Assembly: GCA_017651245.1 (NCBI GenBank)
Contig: JAGCDQ010000002.1
Span: 1 to 64,000 of the forward strand
DNA from: Bacteroidaceae bacterium
GTDB lineage: Bacteria; Bacteroidota; Bacteroidia; Bacteroidales; Bacteroidaceae
Length of the DNA: 64,000 nt
Direction of reading: 5' to 3'
In this document: positions 52,261 to 59,410 of the stretch, one piece after another
Position numbering within the stretch: the first letter of the stretch is position 1
Layout: each line of letters opens with the position of its first letter
The notes under the pieces: model-generated
Told to the model about the DNA's origin: nothing
The model's database searches: none
Seen by the model: only the letters and a program-made list of their open reading frames with translations
Position numbers and translations under genes: made by a program

Positions 52261-53931
52261 TTATTGATTCAACAACGCCCTCGCATTATCCAATGCCGCC
52301 TGTGTCAACTTCTCGCCGCTGAGCATGTGGGCAAGTTCCTCCACGCGCTCCTCATCAGACAGAGGAATGATGTGCGTCAGCGTGTCGTCGCTCGTATCTT
52401 CCTTGTACACCTTGTAGTGATGGCTGCCCAAAGCCGCAATCTGTGGCAAGTGAGTGATGGAAATAACCTGTCGCTCCTGATCACCAATCTCTTTCATGAT
52501 GCGAGCCATCTTTTCCGCGATGGAACCACTCACGCCCGTATCGATTTCATCGAAAATAATCGTGGGCAACTTCACGGCTCCTGCAATCAATGCTTTGAGA
52601 GCCAACATCACTCTGGCGATTTCACCGCCTGAAGCAATCTGACTGACAGGTTTCAGTTCACCACTCTTATTCGCATTGAAGAGGAACTGCACTTGGTCAT
52701 AGCCAGCCGAAGTAAGTTCCGATGGATTCGCCAAAACGGAGCACCTGAACTGCACATTAGGCATTCCGAGTGGCAACAAACGCTCCTCCATTTCCTTTTC
52801 CACCTTCTTAGCAGCCTCCATACGTGATCTAGAGAGCTTCTTTGCCAATCCCAGCACTTTCTCCTTCTGCACCTCCACATCCCGACGAAGTTTTTCGATG
52901 AATTCATCGGAATTGGTGATTCGAGACAGCTTCTCTTCCATCCCCTCCTGAATCTCCAGCAGCTCCTTAATGCTCTCCACGCCATGCTTCTTCTGCAAAG
53001 CATAGATAGTGTTCAGACGCTCATTTACCTGTTCAAGACGATTCGGATTGTATTCCACATCCTCTGCTTGTCCCTCCAATTCATTGGCAACATCCTTCAA
53101 CTCAATGTAGCAGGAATCCAAACGCTCAGCCAACTCCTCAGCAGCAGAATACACCGATGAAATCGACTGAATAGAAGAAATACTTTGTTTGAGCAGCCCC
53201 AACACATCGGTTCCATCCGTGGAAGATTGCAGGTGATTGGCAGCTGTATAAAGGGAGGACTTGATGTCTTCAGCATGTTCGAGCGTCTCCGATTCCTCTT
53301 CCAATTCCTCCTGCTCTCCTTCTTTCAGATTAGCATCTGCCAACTGATTCACTTGGAAACGCAGATAATCCTCATCCTCCTTGCCACTCTTCGCCTCTTC
53401 CAAAACCTCCTCCAACTGTCTCACAAGACGACGATATTCCTTATACTCTTTCTTATAAGCCAACAGCGATTCCTGATGATTAGCAACAATATCAAGGACT
53501 CCTAACTGGAAATCCTCCTTCCCAAGCAGAAGGTTCTTGTGCTGGGAATGTACATCGAGCAGTTGCTCACCAAGGTCTTTCAACTGAGCAAGGGAAGCAG
53601 GAGTGTCGTTGATGAATGCACGAGACTTGCCTGCCGAAGTCAATTCACGACGGATGATGCACTCCTTACCATCGGAATCGAGGTCATTCTCCTGAAAGAA
53701 ATCATCCAAATGGTCACGAGAAATGTCGAAAGCCGCTTCAACCACACAACGTTTGGCATCCGCCTTGATGGAACGCGAATCCGCCCGCTGCCCCAATAAC
53801 AGTCCGATGGCACCAATAATGATAGATTTACCAGCACCCGTCTCACCTGTGATGACAGAAAAGCCCGTATGGAAATCTATGTCAAGGTGTTCGATGAGTG
53901 CGTAGTTCTCAATATGAAGGTGGCTAATCAT
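52261..53931 (-). CDS. recN: DNA repair protein RecN
   Basis: SMC-like ATPase in double-strand break repair, 556 aa. Walker A is ITGETGAGKSIIIGAI (residues about 27-42), two coiled-coil halves follow (about 155-375), and the C-terminal head has the signature ASGGEIARVMLALK and Walker B TIIFDEIDTGVSG. The start at 53931 (MISHLHIENYAL) is canonical and overlaps the DUF4835 stop by 4 nt (ATGA). Confidence 0.96.
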   Translation of the reverse strand: MISHLHIENYALIEHLDIDFHTGFSVITGETGAGKSIIIGAIGLLLGQRADSRSIKADAKRCVVEAAFDISRDHLDDFFQENDLDSDGKECIIRRELTSAGKSRAFINDTPASLAQLKDLGEQLLDVHSQHKNLLLGKEDFQLGVLDIVANHQESLLAYKKEYKEYRRLVRQLEEVLEEAKSGKEDEDYLRFQVNQLADANLKEGEQEELEEESETLEHAEDIKSSLYTAANHLQSSTDGTDVLGLLKQSISSIQSISSVYSAAEELAERLDSCYIELKDVANELEGQAEDVEYNPNRLEQVNERLNTIYALQKKHGVESIKELLEIQEGMEEKLSRITNSDEFIEKLRRDVEVQKEKVLGLAKKLSRSRMEAAKKVEKEMEERLLPLGMPNVQFRCSVLANPSELTSAGYDQVQFLFNANKSGELKPVSQIASGGEIARVMLALKALIAGAVKLPTIIFDEIDTGVSGSIAEKMARIMKEIGDQERQVISITHLPQIAALGSHHYKVYKEDTSDDTLTHIIPLSDEERVEELAHMLSGEKLTQAALDNARALLNQ

Positions 53932-54848
53932 TTTGTAATCTTTTTCCAATAAGTGATTTGACTGGCATTGATGTTGGACAAGATGTCATACACCTGTTGC
54001 TTCTCCTTCTCAGTACCATGTCCCGAATAGATATTGACGATTTCATCGCGCTTGAAATCCGTGAAAATCTGAGGAAGTTGTGAAAGAGGTTTTTCACTGC
54101 TTGCCTCTTTCAGCATTTCCAAAGCCTCAGTGATAGCCGTCCGTCCACGATCAGCGTTTTGTGCCATCTCATCGAGACCTTGGCGGTAATACTTGTACTG
54201 CAAGTTGCGGAAAGGTTCCATAGAGGAATCCATGTAATCATTGATGATTGCGTGGCGATTGTTGGTCTTGTCAAAGGCTTTCCACCCTGGTTCCGACATC
54301 GATTGAGCACTGTTCACAATGCTTTCCACCACATGCAAGACCTCCGTTCCGCCCATCGGGGAGAAAGTGTCCAAATCCATACCAATGAACAGATAAGCAT
54401 AATACGCCAACATGGCCGTCAGGTTGTTGTCCAAGTTATTCTCGTTGAATTCCAAAGCATCCTGCTCCTGATAAGAAAAAGTAAACTCCGTATCACGCAT
54501 GGAGAACACAACCGTGTTGTAACCCGAATTGAAAACGGGGCGATTCACCTGAAAAAGCAATTCGCAGGAAAAGGCATTGTTGGATGCGGTGTATTTCTTC
54601 ACGGTGATGTTCAGGTTGCAGTCAATTCGCTCCGCTTTCTGAAATTGCAAGTCAGTCCATGAATGATTATTCATAAACTCACTGATGGCTGTTTCCAACG
54701 ACTCGAACACAGCATCACTGGTTCCCTGTATTTGAGAATGGTTGACCTTAACGGTACAGTTCAGTTCCTGACCCTCCACCAAAAAGGTATAGGAGCATCC
54801 CAAAAAGAAAAAAAAGAGAAGGGTCAATCTGTTCAAATGTCGACACAT
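53928..54848 (-). CDS. DUF4835 exported protein
   Basis: 306 aa with a signal peptide (hydrophobic LTLLFFFFLGCSYTFLV). The mature part carries family features: ELNCTVKVNHSQIQGT at the start, YAYLFIGMDLDTFSPMGG in the middle and KPLSQLPQIFTDFKRDE near the end. DUF4835 proteins are Bacteroidetes-specific and have been linked to gliding/type IX secretion gene sets; role here unknown. It is translationally coupled to recN. The ATG at 54848 is downstream of the -7 box at 54908. Confidence 0.83.
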   Translation of the reverse strand: MCRHLNRLTLLFFFFLGCSYTFLVEGQELNCTVKVNHSQIQGTSDAVFESLETAISEFMNNHSWTDLQFQKAERIDCNLNITVKKYTASNNAFSCELLFQVNRPVFNSGYNTVVFSMRDTEFTFSYQEQDALEFNENNLDNNLTAMLAYYAYLFIGMDLDTFSPMGGTEVLHVVESIVNSAQSMSEPGWKAFDKTNNRHAIINDYMDSSMEPFRNLQYKYYRQGLDEMAQNADRGRTAITEALEMLKEASSEKPLSQLPQIFTDFKRDEIVNIYSGHGTEKEKQQVYDILSNINASQITYWKKITK

Positions 54849-55213
54849 ACAATTCGAAGTGAATAGGTAAAACGGGAGTATCAACCACCCCGTGCGCTAT
54901 TTTTCGGCAAAAGTACTACTTTCTTCCGACTTACCCAAATAAATGCTCTTCTTTTTGTTTTTTTTGCAAACTGAGCCACGAGGATGGATACATTATGTTT
55001 CACAAATGGCCACAGGATGTTTCCACTTCATATTTTTTTTCCATATTATCAAAGATTTCCCCATGATTTCTTTTTATTTAAATAAAAAAGTTTGTACTTT
55101 TGCAACGGAAACAAACAAAATTAACAAATAAAAAGGTGGCAGATGGCGGTTCATCTGTTCACTTAATAAAAAACTTAAAAGCAAATTCTCAACCGCGAGA
55201 AAAAGAAAAAGTT
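54849..55213. other. 365-bp divergent spacer with two promoters
   Basis: AT-rich and without a gene. Minus-strand TACTTTTG at 54908-54915 is the likely -7 box of DUF4835-recN. Plus-strand TACTTTTG at 55095-55102, with TTTT 20 nt upstream, is the likely promoter of the TM2-caspase cluster, leaving a leader of about 105 nt. No other repeat or hairpin of note is visible. Confidence 0.65.
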
Positions 55214-55441
55214 ATGAAGAATAAGACAACTGCAGGTATTCTTGCAATCCTTTTAGGATGTTTGGGTATTCACAAGTTCTACCTTGGCAATAACAAGGGT
55301 GGTGTTATCTACCTCCTTCTTGGTATTTGCTGCGGTATCGGCGGTATCCTCGGTATCATTGATGGCATTATTTACCTCATGGACACAGAAGAGAAGTTCC
55401 AGGAGCGTATCGCTGCTAACAAGGTATTCGATTTCGCTTAA
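55214..55441 (+). CDS. TM2 domain protein
   Basis: 75 aa. Two membrane helices joined by the TM2 signature: GILAILLGCLGIHKFYLGNN then a second helix GGVIYLLLGICCGIGGI and DGIIYLM. The function of TM2 proteins is not settled. It is the first gene after the cluster promoter. The longer frame starting at 55100 begins on the predicted transcription start; MKNKTTAGI at 55214 is the natural start. In other bacteria TM2 genes are found beside envelope-stress or toxin-like genes, but no firm role follows. Confidence 0.87.
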   Translation: MKNKTTAGILAILLGCLGIHKFYLGNNKGGVIYLLLGICCGIGGILGIIDGIIYLMDTEEKFQERIAANKVFDFA

Positions 55442-55496
55442 TCCTATTGATTCATTTATTATCAAGTAAAAGCAAAAGTTATTAAAAACATCGATT

Positions 55497-55697
55497 ATGA
55501 AAAAGATTCTTTTCGCAGCTGTGGCACTCGTTGCCATCTCTTTCGCTTCCTGCAATGGTTGCGCTAAACTCGACGAAATTCAGAAGGCAGCAGACTCTCT
55601 CTCTGCAGCTTTGGATTCTGCAAGCGCACAGATTGAAAAGGCTGACTCTGCATTCGAAGAGGTAGCTGATTCCGTAGAAGCTTTTGTTGAGGAGTAA
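55497..55697 (+). CDS. Small Ala/Ser/Glu-rich lipoprotein
   Basis: 66 aa. The signal ends in ISFASC (lipidated Cys19), then NGC with a second Cys three residues on. The mature 48 residues are a predicted amphipathic helix or coiled coil with repeated ADS units (AADSLSAALDSASAQIEKAD and following), reminiscent of Lpp-like spacers. It lies 55 nt after the TM2 gene and before a strong hairpin. I recognise no family. The heavily acidic surface may matter for contact with the cluster's exported proteins; this is inference. Confidence 0.75.
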   Translation: MKKILFAAVALVAISFASCNGCAKLDEIQKAADSLSAALDSASAQIEKADSAFEEVADSVEAFVEE

Positions 55698-55748
55698 TCT
55701 CCTGCGAATTGTCATCCATGACATAACGAACAGAACTTATACACTCAA

Positions 55749-55791
55749 GAAGAAAGTTTGCTTGCTCATTACAAGCGAACTTTCTTTCTTT
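55749..55791 (+). terminator. Long hairpin before caspase gene 1
   Basis: 55749-55764 pairs with 55772-55787 over 16 positions with two wobbles, loop CTCATTA, followed by CTTT. It ends 31 nt before the caspase ATG, so it can stop or attenuate readthrough from the TM2-lipoprotein transcript. Confidence 0.8.
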
Positions 55792-55821
55792 ATAAAATGT
55801 CATTATTTCGAGATTCCATAT

Positions 55822-57222
55822 ATGCAAAGAATCTATACACTTTTCATCCTGCTGTGCCTCGCCCTGTCATCAAAGGCACAGACTTTCTACGAGGTAAACT
55901 ACAATGACAGCGATGGAGATGAGTACCTCGGGCTGATGATTTATTATGATGACGAAAATTGCAAAATGCGCCTTGTCTCTGAAAGTTCCATGGAGGAAGA
56001 TATGGTGTATGAGTCACAATATGTGAACCTTGTCGAGGAAAAGGAGAGCGAGGAAGATACGGGCATGATGGCTTATTATCCCCTGGAAAAGAATTTCCCA
56101 ATTTTCGTATGGTTCTGGCAAGAAGATGATGCCAGCGACATTAGCGACAAACCATACTTCACATATAATATAAAAAAAATCAAGCAATATAACGAGACTG
56201 AATACTTCCGTGAAATCAGCCTCGGAGATATGACGGAAGAGTACATTGCCCAATTTTATGGAGAGGGTGAGCCAGAATACAGAATGCTGCTCAACGGCAT
56301 CAATCTCGTAAAACTCCAGGGAGGGGCACACCAAGACATAGAAGTGACCGTGGATGACCCGATCTTCACCAACAACGGAAACAGCAATCAAGGAGAAGAA
56401 AGTAACTACGCCGGAGAAAATGTAGCACCAGGAGAAGGAGAAAACACCCTGGGAGGCACCGATACAGCTAACGAATCCACACTTCACCTCATTGTGGTGG
56501 CAAACACCAATGTGAGCGACATTGGTACCGCTTGCCAAAAGGATATGGTCAACCTCAGCAGCGAGTTTGGCGGCATTGCAAGAGTATTAGGTATGAAATA
56601 TGACCTCAAGACCATATGGGGGCAATCATACAGCAAAGAGAATCTTGCTCAATTGATACAAAAATTCAATCCCAATCACGATGACGTGGTTGTGTTCGTC
56701 TATACAGGTCATGGCTTCCGTTTTGATGACCAAAGCGACTACTACCCCAACATGGATCTCAGCCCAACAAGCTATGATGACCCTATCAAAAATTATGTGG
56801 CTGTCAGTGACATTTATAAAGAACTTGTGGCCAAAGGGGCACGTCTCAGTCTTGTATTCAGTGACTGCTGCAACAATGAGGTAGGAGCCACCACTCCATT
56901 GGTGAACACCAACACATTGTTTTCACGTTCCAACAACAACTTTGACGTCAGAAAACTAGAACGTCTTTTTGTGGACGCCAGCGGTAGTTTGATAGCCACC
57001 GCAGCCAGTCCTGGTGAAATCTCATGGTGCGGTGTTAATGGTGGCTTCTTCACCTTGAGTCTCCTTGAAAGCTTGCGCAGTCAAGTGAGTGTACTATCCG
57101 AACAAACTCCAGATTGGGAAGTCTTGGTGGGCAACGCAATTGCTGCTGCCACAGCCAAATCAGAGAACAATCAAAACACCAAAGCACAGCATGGCATGAA
57201 AATGATTAGAATTAATAAATAA
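55822..57222 (+). CDS. Exported caspase-like protease (C14 family), large
   Basis: 466 aa. A signal peptide (MQRIYTLFILLCLALSSKAQ) is followed by an N-terminal beta-rich domain (about 21-185), an Asn/Gly/Glu-rich linker (about 186-215, containing ENVAPGEGEN) and a caspase domain (about 218-460). The catalytic His is in VYTGHGFRF (His297) and the Cys in FSDCCNNE (Cys350 by the D-x-C pattern, beside Cys349). The end is AQHGMKMIRINK, matched in caspase 2. Caspase-family enzymes cut after Asp, Arg or Lys; specificity is not evident. The tethered thioredoxin gene follows after 15 nt. Confidence 0.87.
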   Translation: MQRIYTLFILLCLALSSKAQTFYEVNYNDSDGDEYLGLMIYYDDENCKMRLVSESSMEEDMVYESQYVNLVEEKESEEDTGMMAYYPLEKNFPIFVWFWQEDDASDISDKPYFTYNIKKIKQYNETEYFREISLGDMTEEYIAQFYGEGEPEYRMLLNGINLVKLQGGAHQDIEVTVDDPIFTNNGNSNQGEESNYAGENVAPGEGENTLGGTDTANESTLHLIVVANTNVSDIGTACQKDMVNLSSEFGGIARVLGMKYDLKTIWGQSYSKENLAQLIQKFNPNHDDVVVFVYTGHGFRFDDQSDYYPNMDLSPTSYDDPIKNYVAVSDIYKELVAKGARLSLVFSDCCNNEVGATTPLVNTNTLFSRSNNNFDVRKLERLFVDASGSLIATAASPGEISWCGVNGGFFTLSLLESLRSQVSVLSEQTPDWEVLVGNAIAAATAKSENNQNTKAQHGMKMIRINK

Positions 57223-57237
57223 CATAAAAAGAAAACA

Positions 57238-57822
57238 ATGAAAACAATTTTCAAGGTCGCCATAGGCGTTATTCTCGGTTTCTTTATTCTCATTGGTATT
57301 GTAACCTGTGCACTCTCTTTCGATGATGATGAGCAAGAAACTGAAACGACTGAAGAATACTATGACGAAGAGGACATGAACGATGCTGAAGACTACTACG
57401 ACAGCGAGGAAGGTGGCAACAACGATGCGAGCAACATTGCACCAGGAGAAGATGGCGACGCCTACTCTTCATGGGGTGATGGCACTTGTCGTCCCATCAA
57501 TACAAAGCAGTTCTATCAGCTGGTGGCATCCAAAAAGAATTATGAGACCTACATTGGTGATGGTCCATGCGTGGTAGATTTCTGGGCTGATTGGTGTGGC
57601 TACTGCAAACAAATTGACCCATATATGAAGGCGTTGGCAAAGAAATACAAAGGGAAAGTGCAATTCTACAAGGTCAATGCTGATGAAAATGAGGAATTGA
57701 TGCAGCTCTATGGTATTGATGGACTTCCAACGATTTTCTTCTGCAATGGCGAAGATATACAAATGAACAGCGGTGCTCAGTCACAGGCAGAATTCGACAA
57801 GATAATTCGAGAGATGTTGTAA
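57238..57822 (+). CDS. Membrane-tethered thioredoxin-fold protein (CGYC)
   Basis: 194 aa. One N-terminal membrane helix (VAIGVILGFFILIGIVTCAL) and a very acidic linker (about 28-75, rich in Asp, Glu and Tyr) place a thioredoxin domain (about 85-194) on the periplasmic side. The active site is WADWCGYCKQ (Cys120, Cys123) and the cis-Pro loop is DGLPTIFF. CGYC is also the DsbC motif, so reductase or isomerase action is plausible. The linker contains SNIAPGEDG, close to VAPGEG in caspase 1. The gene lies between the two caspase genes, 15 and 4 nt away, so its client is probably one or both. Confidence 0.85.
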   Translation: MKTIFKVAIGVILGFFILIGIVTCALSFDDDEQETETTEEYYDEEDMNDAEDYYDSEEGGNNDASNIAPGEDGDAYSSWGDGTCRPINTKQFYQLVASKKNYETYIGDGPCVVDFWADWCGYCKQIDPYMKALAKKYKGKVQFYKVNADENEELMQLYGIDGLPTIFFCNGEDIQMNSGAQSQAEFDKIIREML

Positions 57823-57826
57823 GAAA

Positions 57827-58801
57827 ATGAAAGTTCGATTATTATTCACATTATTTATTAATATAGCCATTGTTGCGTTCGCCCAAGAGGGAACGGACAC
57901 TTTGGCTTCATTCTCCGATGCTGAGCAGGAAGCTGAATATCAGTCCTTCTATACCGACGATGAAGAGGAAGAGGTGATGGGCAAAGCCATTCTGCAAGGT
58001 AATAACAGCGGAAAGGTCAATGTCAAACCAACCGAAACCACCAACGGTGCACCATGCAAGATGTGGGCAATCTTGGTTGCAGACACCTATGACCAAAATA
58101 TTGGGGAAGATGACAAATATGACAATTTGGCTCTCAATAAAGAATTGAAAGCTATCGCACAATGTTTGGGTATCGAAGTAAGCATTACCAACATCACTGC
58201 CAACAGAGCATACGACAAGCGTAATCTCGCCAATGCTATTGCCAATCTGCGACCAGCCAAGAATGACATTGTTTTCTTCTGCTTCAATGGGCACGGATTC
58301 CGTTGGGATGATCAAAAGGACATGTATCCCAACATTTGCATGATTGGCCCTAATGATGATGTCTATGGACACTACGTGGCAACCACCGACATCTACAATG
58401 CCATTAAAGCAAAGGGAGCACGTCTCAATGTGGTTATCACTGATTGCTGCAATTCCAAATATGGCGAATATGCACCTCGTCAGAAAGATAATACACTCTA
58501 TAGCCGTACCAACACACGGGTAAGCAAGAAGCGGATGCAGGAGCTCTTTCTGGGAACCAAGGGAATCATCCTCGCCACTGCTGCCAAACCAGGTGAATAT
58601 GCATGGTCTTTTGATGGAACTGGTAGTGCCTTCACGCAATCTTTTATCGCTCAACTGCGTAAAGAAGCAAGCACCAACCAAACAGATTCCCCTAATTGGC
58701 AACGACTCATTGACAACGCCATTGAATCCGCACGAAGGAAAACCACTTCTTGCGAAAACACCCAGCATGGTATGCGATACATGAGCATTACTAAACAATA
58801 A
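57827..58801 (+). CDS. Exported caspase-like protease (C14 family), small
   Basis: 324 aa. A signal peptide (ending IAIVAFAQ) leads to an acidic segment (about 22-50, with DDEEEEV) and the caspase domain (about 72-320). His156 is in CFNGHGFRWDD and the cysteine pair Cys207-Cys208 in ITDCCNSK. The domain parallels caspase 1: YPNICM against YPNMDL, IYNAIKAKGARLNVVITDCC against IYKELVAKGARLSLVFSDCC, and the ending TQHGMRYMSITKQ. It lacks the large N-terminal domain. The two genes look like an old duplication. Only four bases separate it from the thioredoxin gene. Confidence 0.87.
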   Translation: MKVRLLFTLFINIAIVAFAQEGTDTLASFSDAEQEAEYQSFYTDDEEEEVMGKAILQGNNSGKVNVKPTETTNGAPCKMWAILVADTYDQNIGEDDKYDNLALNKELKAIAQCLGIEVSITNITANRAYDKRNLANAIANLRPAKNDIVFFCFNGHGFRWDDQKDMYPNICMIGPNDDVYGHYVATTDIYNAIKAKGARLNVVITDCCNSKYGEYAPRQKDNTLYSRTNTRVSKKRMQELFLGTKGIILATAAKPGEYAWSFDGTGSAFTQSFIAQLRKEASTNQTDSPNWQRLIDNAIESARRKTTSCENTQHGMRYMSITKQ

Positions 58802-58822
58802 AAACAACTAAATCCCAACAAC

Positions 58823-59410
58823 ATGGACAAATTCTTTTCAAACAACACATTCGTCATTGACGAGAAAATCGCTGCATTCAAACTATCCAATGCTTACAAA
58901 GTGTATAATGGAGAGGGTCAAGAGATTGGCGCCATTCAGGAACACAAATCATTCTTGCGCGTCATTCTTGGTCTTTTCCTAAGCGATGGCATGCTACCGT
59001 TTGAGCTGAACATCCTGAATATGGATGGCAAACGTATCGCCCAACTCAAGCGCAGCTTGACTCTGTTCATGTCAAAGGTACAAATCTATAATGAGGCAGG
59101 AGCTCCCATCGGCTCTTTCAAACAGAAATTCACGTTACTGAAGCCAAAGTTTACCCTTCTTAATAATCTAGGGAAGGAAATGGCCACCATCAAGGGAGAT
59201 TGGAAGGCTTGGAATTTTGAAATAACCGATGCCGCTGGTCAGCAAATCGGCACCGTGGATAAGAAATGGAACGGGATGGCAAAAGAATTATTCACCACCG
59301 CAGATAAATATGCTGTGAACATCGAGTCGACGTTGACCGATGAGAACACACGCATCGCTGTGGCTTCTGTTGCTGCAGCTATTGATATGATTTTGAAAGA
59401 GGGATCGTAA
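58823..59410 (+). CDS. Scramblase / LURP-one-like protein
   Basis: 195 aa, no signal peptide. It is built from about five beta-hairpin units with the pattern Val/Ile-x-Asn-x-x-Gly-x-x-Ile: VYNGEGQEIGAI, ILNMDGKRIAQL, IYNEAGAPIGSF, LLNNLGKEMATI and ITDAAGQQIGTV. This matches the phospholipid-scramblase/LURP-one-related (tubby C-terminal-like) fold. A hydrophobic stretch FLRVILGLFLSDGMLPF sits near residue 45-60, and the C-terminal helix (RIAVASVAAAIDMIL) could touch membrane. It is last in the cluster, 21 nt after caspase 2. Scrambling activity is not demonstrated for most bacterial members. Confidence 0.78.
   Translation: MDKFFSNNTFVIDEKIAAFKLSNAYKVYNGEGQEIGAIQEHKSFLRVILGLFLSDGMLPFELNILNMDGKRIAQLKRSLTLFMSKVQIYNEAGAPIGSFKQKFTLLKPKFTLLNNLGKEMATIKGDWKAWNFEITDAAGQQIGTVDKKWNGMAKELFTTADKYAVNIESTLTDENTRIAVASVAAAIDMILKEGS

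What the first reader, a model, noticed from the sequence alone, without database searches (positions are those of the whole stretch)
55214..59410. Caspase-thioredoxin-caspase-scramblase cluster
Six same-strand genes encode a TM2 protein, a small lipoprotein, two exported caspase-like proteases, a membrane-tethered thioredoxin between them, and a scramblase/LURP-one-like protein. Seen: intact His and Cys motifs in both proteases, signal peptides, tight spacing (15, 4, 21 nt) from caspase 1 on. Known: in eukaryotes caspases can activate lipid scramblases, and bacterial caspase-like proteins occur in defence and cell-death systems. Inferred: an envelope proteolysis module, possibly stress- or death-related, in which lipid asymmetry is an output. 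I know of no description of this gene set.
Basis: partly seen in the sequence, partly recalled or inferred. Interest (0 to 1): 0.82.

Follow-up and report, generated by a model that had tools for sequence, protein, structure and literature searches.

The report
Tagged exported caspase–thioredoxin–caspase cassette
In some uncultured gut Bacteroidales, two exported caspase-like proteases and a membrane-anchored thioredoxin travel together as a three-gene cassette and share a short peptide tag, which points to a little-known protease module of the bacterial envelope; the neighbouring "scramblase" is probably a bystander.

Summary
The six genes are real, but the unit is smaller than proposed. The core is Casp1–Trx–Casp2, which recurs at five kinds of genomic site. 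The scramblase is an independent resident of the window's site: it occurs in 21 of 45 genus genomes, only 9 with the cassette beside it. Housekeeping and cassette trees conflict strongly, so the cassette seems to be exchanged between species. Both proteases have intact His/Cys dyads and invariant acidic residues that predict cleavage after Arg/Lys, not Asp. The unexpected find is a short tag, N-[V/I]-x-P-G-E, in the disordered linkers of both Casp1 and Trx. In two relatives a form of it ends Casp1 instead, and it ends a lipoprotein beside one caspase pair and a C10 protease beside another caspase. In 45 genus genomes 19 of 22 exact N[VI]APGE sites lie in caspase clusters. A second tail, DFYGN (once DDFYK), ends 11 of 11 caspase-linked C10 proteases and 0 of 54 unlinked ones. 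I favour an accessory envelope proteolysis module, possibly with tag-based recruitment. Lipid scrambling or cell death as output has no support here.

The parts
55214..55441 (+). TM2-domain protein, 75 aa; resident of the site, not part of the cassette
   Evidence: Pfam TM2 5.8e-17; present without caspases in L118, L121, L122, L123, L125, L126 and, with Trx, L124
55497..55697 (+). small lipoprotein, 66 aa; resident of the site in some species
   Evidence: sub-threshold PG1828-family lipoprotein hit, 34.8 bits against a cut-off of 50; present without caspases in L118 and L119
55747..55790 (+). hairpin with a T-rich 3' side, terminator- or attenuator-like, between lipoprotein and Casp1
   Evidence: -20.4 kcal/mol, z -5.86, 0 of 200 shuffles as stable; stable hairpins also before Casp1 in 4 of 4 relatives and before the scramblase at 4 of 4 empty sites folded (z -2.5 to -5.8)
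55822..57222 (+). Casp1, 466 aa: signal peptide, beta-rich N-terminal domain (about residues 21-165), disordered tagged linker, C14 caspase domain
   Evidence: Pfam C14; AlphaFold model, mean pLDDT 62, linker 167-216 under 50; H297/C350, D241, D348, E399 invariant
56419..56436 (+). tag NVAPGE (residues 200-205) in the Casp1 linker
57238..57822 (+). Trx, 194 aa: N-terminal membrane anchor, acidic linker, thioredoxin domain WCGYC
   Evidence: Pfam Thioredoxin 5.6e-26; hydropathy; alignment of 12
57433..57450 (+). tag NIAPGE in the Trx linker
57827..58801 (+). Casp2, 324 aa: signal peptide, short acidic pro-region, C14 caspase domain
58823..59410 (+). Scramblase/LURP-one-like protein, 195 aa, no export signal seen; co-directional neighbour, not part of the cassette
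   Evidence: Pfam Scramblase 1.6e-22; distribution; empty sites

Best explanation
An accessory cassette, apparently exchanged between species of the genus, that encodes an extracytoplasmic proteolysis module. SHOWN by sequence: two C14-fold proteases with intact dyads and signal-peptide-like N-termini; a thioredoxin with a membrane anchor between them; recurrence as a unit at different sites; a shared short tag N[VI]xPGE in the Casp1 and Trx linkers and at C-termini of other caspase-linked exported proteins. INFERRED: the proteases cleave after Arg/Lys, because an Asp two residues before the catalytic Cys, an Asp in helix 1 and a Glu in loop L5 are invariant, as in the MALT1 S1 pocket. INFERRED: the thioredoxin reduces or isomerises protease cysteines, and its anchor holds the module at the inner membrane. 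INFERRED, weaker: the tag is a docking sequence that gathers module members and clients (the other caspase, a lipoprotein, a C10 protease) on a common partner, giving a local protease relay. The tag holds no Arg/Lys, so it is unlikely to be the cut site itself. The output is unknown; envelope protein turnover or zymogen activation seems likelier to me than cell death or anti-phage defence.
For: Recurrence: L041, L042 and L043 carry Casp1, Trx and Casp2 at sites unrelated to the window's. Trees: CoaBC+DnaN joins L034 with L040 and L035 with L038 (each 98/95); the cassette tree rejects both (p-AU 4e-53 and 8e-43). Tag: 22 exact N[VI]APGE sites in 45 genus genomes, 19 in caspase clusters; a looser pattern hit 26 of 665 distinct proteins in the loci scanned, 25 of them caspase-module proteins, most related by descent; tag conserved inside a hypervariable stretch with varying synonymous codons; absent from the linker and present at the C-terminus of Casp1 in L041 (and as NIAPSS in L042). 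C10 tails: 11 of 11 caspase-linked C10 proteases end in DFYGN (10) or DDFYK (1); 0 of 54 unlinked ones with a readable end do, of 55. Fusion: in G021 (L013) Casp2 carries a Trx-like membrane anchor, 18/28 identical. S1 residues: with MALT1 passages of PMC4357240.
Against: The association is not obligatory: G033 has Casp1-Casp2 without Trx, G021 has the caspases on different contigs, G018 has the Trx at this site with no caspase found. Three of 12 aligned Trx linkers (L041, L042, L043) lack N[VI]APGE, as does that of G018. The hexamer is not confined to caspase loci: outside the genus it has 51 sites in 365 genomes against 12 for the reversed control (sites of all 399 genomes), and the 18 genes read there are unrelated proteins; one unlinked C10 protease has it internally (NVEPGE). 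The models are of modest confidence (pLDDT 62, 66) with low Foldseek TM-scores (0.2-0.5). S1 residues were matched by motif and position, not by superposition. The tree conflict could partly reflect recombination of the housekeeping genes or draft-genome errors. Docking is purely inferred; no partner is known.
Confidence: 0.5

Rival explanations
1. One reading: a six-gene envelope stress or death module in which the caspases act on the scramblase-like protein and lipid asymmetry is the output.
For: Tight co-directional spacing of Casp1-Trx-Casp2-scramblase (15, 4, 21 nt); 9 genus genomes keep the scramblase next to Casp2.
Against: The scramblase occurs in 21 of 45 genus genomes, 12 of them without the cassette beside it; L041, L042, L043 and L044 have no scramblase beside the caspases; in G021, G030 and G033 both exist but on different contigs. 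The proteases have export signals by eye, the scramblase none.
Confidence: 0.06
2. Two ordinary exported housekeeping or nutritional cysteine proteases with a neighbouring thioredoxin; the shared tags are inert linker sequence copied between neighbouring genes by recombination.
For: Casp1-like genes stand without a Trx or Casp2 next to them in other Bacteroidales families (L130-L134). Linkers are variable and acidic, and one copying event into Casp1 and Trx followed by descent would explain most of the 19 sites. The hexamer occurs in unrelated proteins of other genera.
Against: The tag is nearly invariant inside a hypervariable stretch with differing synonymous codons. It changes position within Casp1 and ends two proteins of other families beside caspases, one in another genus. 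The C10 tail splits cleanly by linkage to a caspase (11 of 11 against 0 of 54), although the linked C10 proteins are also one orthologous group.
Confidence: 0.3
3. A defence or abortive-infection system using caspases.
For: Bacterial caspase-like proteins occur in defence systems (recalled); patchy distribution and apparent exchange between species would fit.
Against: Only one weak PADLOC hit (E 0.0054, 14 bits); no sensor or NACHT-type partner in the cassette; both proteases look exported, whereas known defence caspases act in the cytoplasm (recalled); Casp2 has no hit among 50,697 phage records.
Confidence: 0.06

Closest known systems
Peptidase family C14 (metacaspases, orthocaspases, paracaspase MALT1; C14B)
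   Same: Caspase fold, His/Cys dyad and acidic residues predicted for the S1 pocket; best structural matches of both models are MALT1 chains
   Different: Signal peptides, a beta-rich N-terminal domain without a Pfam name (Casp1) or a short acidic pro-region (Casp2); paired, with a tethered thioredoxin between. The 2012 survey of prokaryotic metacaspase operons names Bacteroidetes among four groups with multi-metacaspase operons; 'thioredoxin' occurs 0 times in its main text (PMC3501461, passages)
Nodularia spumigena metacaspase M33 locus
   Same: A DsbA-like thioredoxin gene neighbours a bacterial metacaspase gene (PMC4933709, passages)
   Different: Cyanobacterium; [quoted passage not shown] its sequences were not compared here
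EACC1-associated caspases (NCBIfam NF047832)
   Same: Only NCBIfam match of both proteases, 39.2 bits (Casp2) and 25.4 bits (Casp1)
   Different: Far below the curated cut-off of 140 bits
C11/C25 clan CD proteases of Bacteroidales (clostripain, PmC11, gingipains)
   Same: Clan CD, exported, basic P1 preference (recalled; clostripain Arg in the table passage of PMC4357240)
   Different: No C11 or C25 Pfam hit up to E 1; both proteins hit C14
C10 (streptopain-like) proteases (family named by eye)
   Same: A C10 gene directly precedes the third caspase, Casp3, in 11 genus genomes and follows a Casp1-like gene in L202; these C10 proteins end in DFYGN-type or N[VI]xPGE tails
   Different: Different clan; not part of the window's cassette

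Membership tests
Peptidase family C14 (Pfam PF00656) | Score above Pfam's curated cut-off | tested here: met
   48.4 and 52.7 bits against 21.4
Peptidase family C14 (Pfam PF00656) | Intact His/Cys dyad | tested here: met
   Invariant in 13 of 13 sequences of each caspase
C14B (metacaspase/paracaspase type) | Acidic S1 pocket, cleavage after Arg/Lys | tested here: inconclusive
   D241/D348/E399 and D99/D206/E257 invariant, matched by position to MALT1 Asp365/Asp462/Glu500 (PMC4357240); activity not measured
EACC1-associated caspase (NF047832) | Score above the NCBIfam cut-off | tested here: not met
   39.2 and 25.4 bits against 140
Anti-phage caspases (PADLOC) | Convincing PADLOC match | tested here: not met
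   Five proteins scanned: one hit, E 0.0054, 14 bits, for Casp2; none for Casp1, Trx, scramblase or TM2
C11/C25 (clostripain, gingipain) | Match to the family's Pfam model | tested here: not met
   No C11 or C25 family among the hits up to E 1
Thioredoxin (PF00085) | Score above cut-off and CxxC motif | tested here: met
   91 bits against 23.5; WCGYC in 12 of 12 aligned
Scramblase (PF03803) | Score above Pfam's curated cut-off | tested here: met
   80.4 bits against 25.4
Scramblase (PF03803) | Moves lipids between leaflets | not testable with these tools
   No 19-residue segment over 1.6 in hydropathy (maximum 1.57)

The most novel reading that the evidence does not exclude
A tag-coded envelope protease network: caspase-type (C14) proteases, a tethered thioredoxin, lipoproteins and C10 proteases of Bacteroidales carry short peptide codes (N[VI]xPGE and DFYGN-type), placed in linkers or at C-termini, that recruit them to one another or to a shared receptor, forming a recruitment-based proteolytic relay outside the cytoplasm, reminiscent of adaptor-driven caspase activation but with linear tags in place of death-fold domains.
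Probability: 0.22. Interest if true: 0.82.

Novelty: new variant of a known kind. Interest (0 to 1): 0.56.

Why it matters
What bacterial caspase-like proteases do, and how they find substrates, is largely open. A cassette whose members, and whose presumed partners in other species, share portable peptide tags offers a direct handle: delete or move the tag and see what changes. It also brings an extracytoplasmic thioredoxin into caspase biology and gives a positional code by which further clients can be sought. The negative part matters too: it removes the attractive but unsupported caspase-scramblase link from this cluster.

Tried and rejected
Scramblase, TM2 and lipoprotein as module members: rejected on distribution and empty sites. 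DFYG as a genome-wide tag: rejected; the pattern RAYRAYTTYTAYGGN occurs in 45 of 45 genus genomes at about the rate of its reversed control, so only its position at the ends of caspase-linked C10 proteins, and its recurrence in some Trx linkers, carries weight. N[VI]xPGE as a common C-terminal signal: rejected; 11 sites in 389 family genomes against 7 for the reversed control, 5 with a true stop, and the only one that ends a gene I find credible is the caspase-linked C10 of G517 (G033, whose lipoprotein ends so, was not in that sample). The vicinal Cys pair before the active site as a Trx-specific redox switch: not kept, because caspases without a Trx neighbour have it too (L130-L134). The tag as cleavage site: not kept, as it has no Arg/Lys. 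Profile searches of solved structures found nothing. Casp2 on plasmids or phages: best plasmid hit 29% identity, phages none. A promoter between the hairpin and Casp1: the Bacteroides-type pattern gave no site there, and sigma-70-type hits are near chance (15 against 12.7). The terminator scan did not list the hairpin on the + strand; it was found by folding. Nine searches of the open-access library found no description of the gene set or the tag; subscription papers are not held.

Papers: PMC3501461, PMC4357240 and PMC4933709 by passages only; all others by search listing. MALT1 catalytic numbering, caspases in defence, the meaning of the RUG isolate names and the family names of porin-like, glycosidase-like and C10 proteins are recalled or by eye.
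Full report
WHAT IS THERE. The closest titled record is 'uncultured Bacteroidales bacterium isolate RUG11335' (Casp2 99% identical, L033); titles of other relatives name sheep and water-buffalo rumen and horse faeces. The six ORFs and their domains are as described. Additions: the ATG of Casp1 is at 55822; the scramblase shows no N-terminal hydrophobic segment; a strong hairpin with a T-rich 3' side separates the TM2/lipoprotein pair from Casp1, and comparable hairpins precede Casp1 in 4 of 4 relatives and the scramblase at 4 of 4 empty sites folded.

WHAT BELONGS TOGETHER. I found 14 genomes with a Casp2 orthologue at 59% identity or more: the window, L033-L044 and L013. Casp1 is in the same cluster in 13 of 14 and Trx lies directly upstream of Casp2 in 12 of 14; 9 of 14 have the scramblase next to Casp2. 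Two cases break the trio: G033/L044 lacks Trx; in G021 the two caspases lie on different contigs, and there Casp2 begins with a Trx-like membrane anchor (18/28 identical) and an acidic stretch. In L041 Casp1 is divergent from Trx-Casp2. A fifteenth genome, G011, is cut by a contig end inside Casp1 (L151). The scramblase was found in 21 of 45 genus genomes: 9 beside the cassette, 3 with caspases elsewhere, 9 without a Casp2 orthologue found (three of these, G002, G003 and G024, have Casp3). At L118, L119, L121, L122, L123, L125 and L126 no caspase lies between TM2 or lipoprotein and the scramblase; in L124 (G018) only the Trx is there. In L034 and L040 the CoaBC side is the same but RecN/PorD were not found upstream.

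HOW IT MOVES. On a CoaBC+DnaN tree of 17 loci the cassette needs three changes of state (the count cannot tell gain from loss). That tree joins L034 with L040 and L035 with L038, both at 98/95. The cassette tree rejects both pairs (p-AU 4e-53 and 8e-43). The simplest reading is exchange between species at this site. Casp2 has no close relative in the plasmid or phage collections.

THE TAG. Casp1 (NVAPGE) and Trx (NIAPGE) share a hexamer in their linkers. A DNA pattern for N[VI]APGE found 22 sites in 12 of 45 genus genomes and none for the reversed control. By position 19 lie in caspase clusters: Casp1 and Trx linkers, and the very C-terminus of the lipoprotein downstream of the G033 caspases. 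The other 3 lie in a porin-like protein (twice) and a glycosidase-like protein. In 399 family genomes the pattern has 65 sites: 14 in the 34 genus genomes and 51 in the 365 others, against 12 for the reversed control; so outside the genus the hexamer is not rare. Of the 25 loci outside the genus that came with that call, 18 gave a called gene with N[VIM]APGE, and none is a caspase or Trx of this kind. A looser scan of the window and loci L033-L044, L118-L153 and L201-L208 hit 26 of 665 distinct proteins: 14 Casp1, 9 Trx, 1 lipoprotein, 1 C10 protease (twice, once at its very end) and 1 unrelated; the Casp1 and Trx cases are mostly descent. Casp1 positions 184-196 and 212-219 vary among nine species while GEN[VI]xPGEG-x-NT is nearly invariant, with different synonymous codons: selection seems to act on the peptide. 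In L041 and L042 the motif is missing from the linker and a form of it ends the protein (DNVAPGEGGNTLDL, QNIAPSSGGSTLDL). In composition-preserving shuffles of five tagged segments, chosen after the fact, it appears in 4 to 148 of 200,000.

A SECOND TAIL. A third caspase (Casp3, 38-42% identical to Casp1) directly follows a C10-type protease in 11 of 11 genomes where that orthologue was found, among 16 searched. This C10 ends in DFYGN in 10 and DDFYK in 1. One search listed 59 other C10 places in those genomes, 55 genes by my count of places. Of these, 54 have a readable C-terminus (11; 43 of 44 regions) and 0 of 54 ends in either tail; one has an internal NVEPGE. None of the 44 regions read holds a caspase; the 11 lie on contigs with no caspase match. 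The linked C10 proteins are one orthologous group, so the split may be descent. FYG-like sequences also sit in the Trx linkers of L124 (DDFYGD) and L043 (DNFYDN; L041 and L042 have VYGN and IYGN), near the mature N-terminus of Casp2 in L041/L042 (DNFYGT), and in the G033 lipoprotein tail 16 residues before its NVAPGE. As a free pattern FYG is no commoner than its control, so this part is weaker.

READING. The safest statement is an exchanged cassette for an extracytoplasmic C14 protease pair with a tethered thioredoxin. The bolder one is that the tags are docking codes that assemble a protease relay. The tags are unlikely to be cut sites if the enzymes cleave after Arg/Lys. A thioredoxin role as reductant for the protease cysteines is plausible but not exclusive, since each partner can occur without the other.

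NOVELTY. Paired metacaspases in one operon are reported for Bacteroidetes (PMC3501461, passages), and a DsbA-like thioredoxin gene beside a metacaspase gene for Nodularia (PMC4933709, passages). The caspase-thioredoxin-caspase arrangement with shared tags was not found in nine library searches. I file it as a new variant of a known kind.

Noticed in passing
L138-L147, L235-L245: A third exported caspase (Casp3) follows a C10-type protease in 11 genus genomes and is followed by a 231-239-aa protein in the 10 of them read downstream; in L202 (another genus) a C10 follows a Casp1-like gene.
   Followed up: partly
L013 1183-2307 (G021): Casp2 with a Trx-like membrane anchor and acidic linker but no Trx domain.
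   Followed up: yes
L133 7168-7689: The unnamed N-terminal domain of Casp1 occurs alone as a 173-aa protein next to a Casp1-like gene.
   Followed up: no
L206, L207, L208: Different caspases (about 380-400 aa) in other genera of the family sit among small exported proteins of similar sizes, which looks like a repeated multi-gene cluster.
   Followed up: no
L036-L039, Casp2 residues about 177-183: Casp2 itself has DDVYGN in a loop between the catalytic His and Cys, resembling the DFYGN tail; the tail may mimic this segment.
   Followed up: no
window 53928-54884: The divergent upstream gene is the type IX secretion protein PorD (370 bits, cut-off 170), so the organism may have that export route.
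   Followed up: no
window, whole: The Bacteroides-type promoter pattern TTTG-N17-22-TANNTTTG occurs 8 times against 1.15 expected in shuffles.
   Followed up: no
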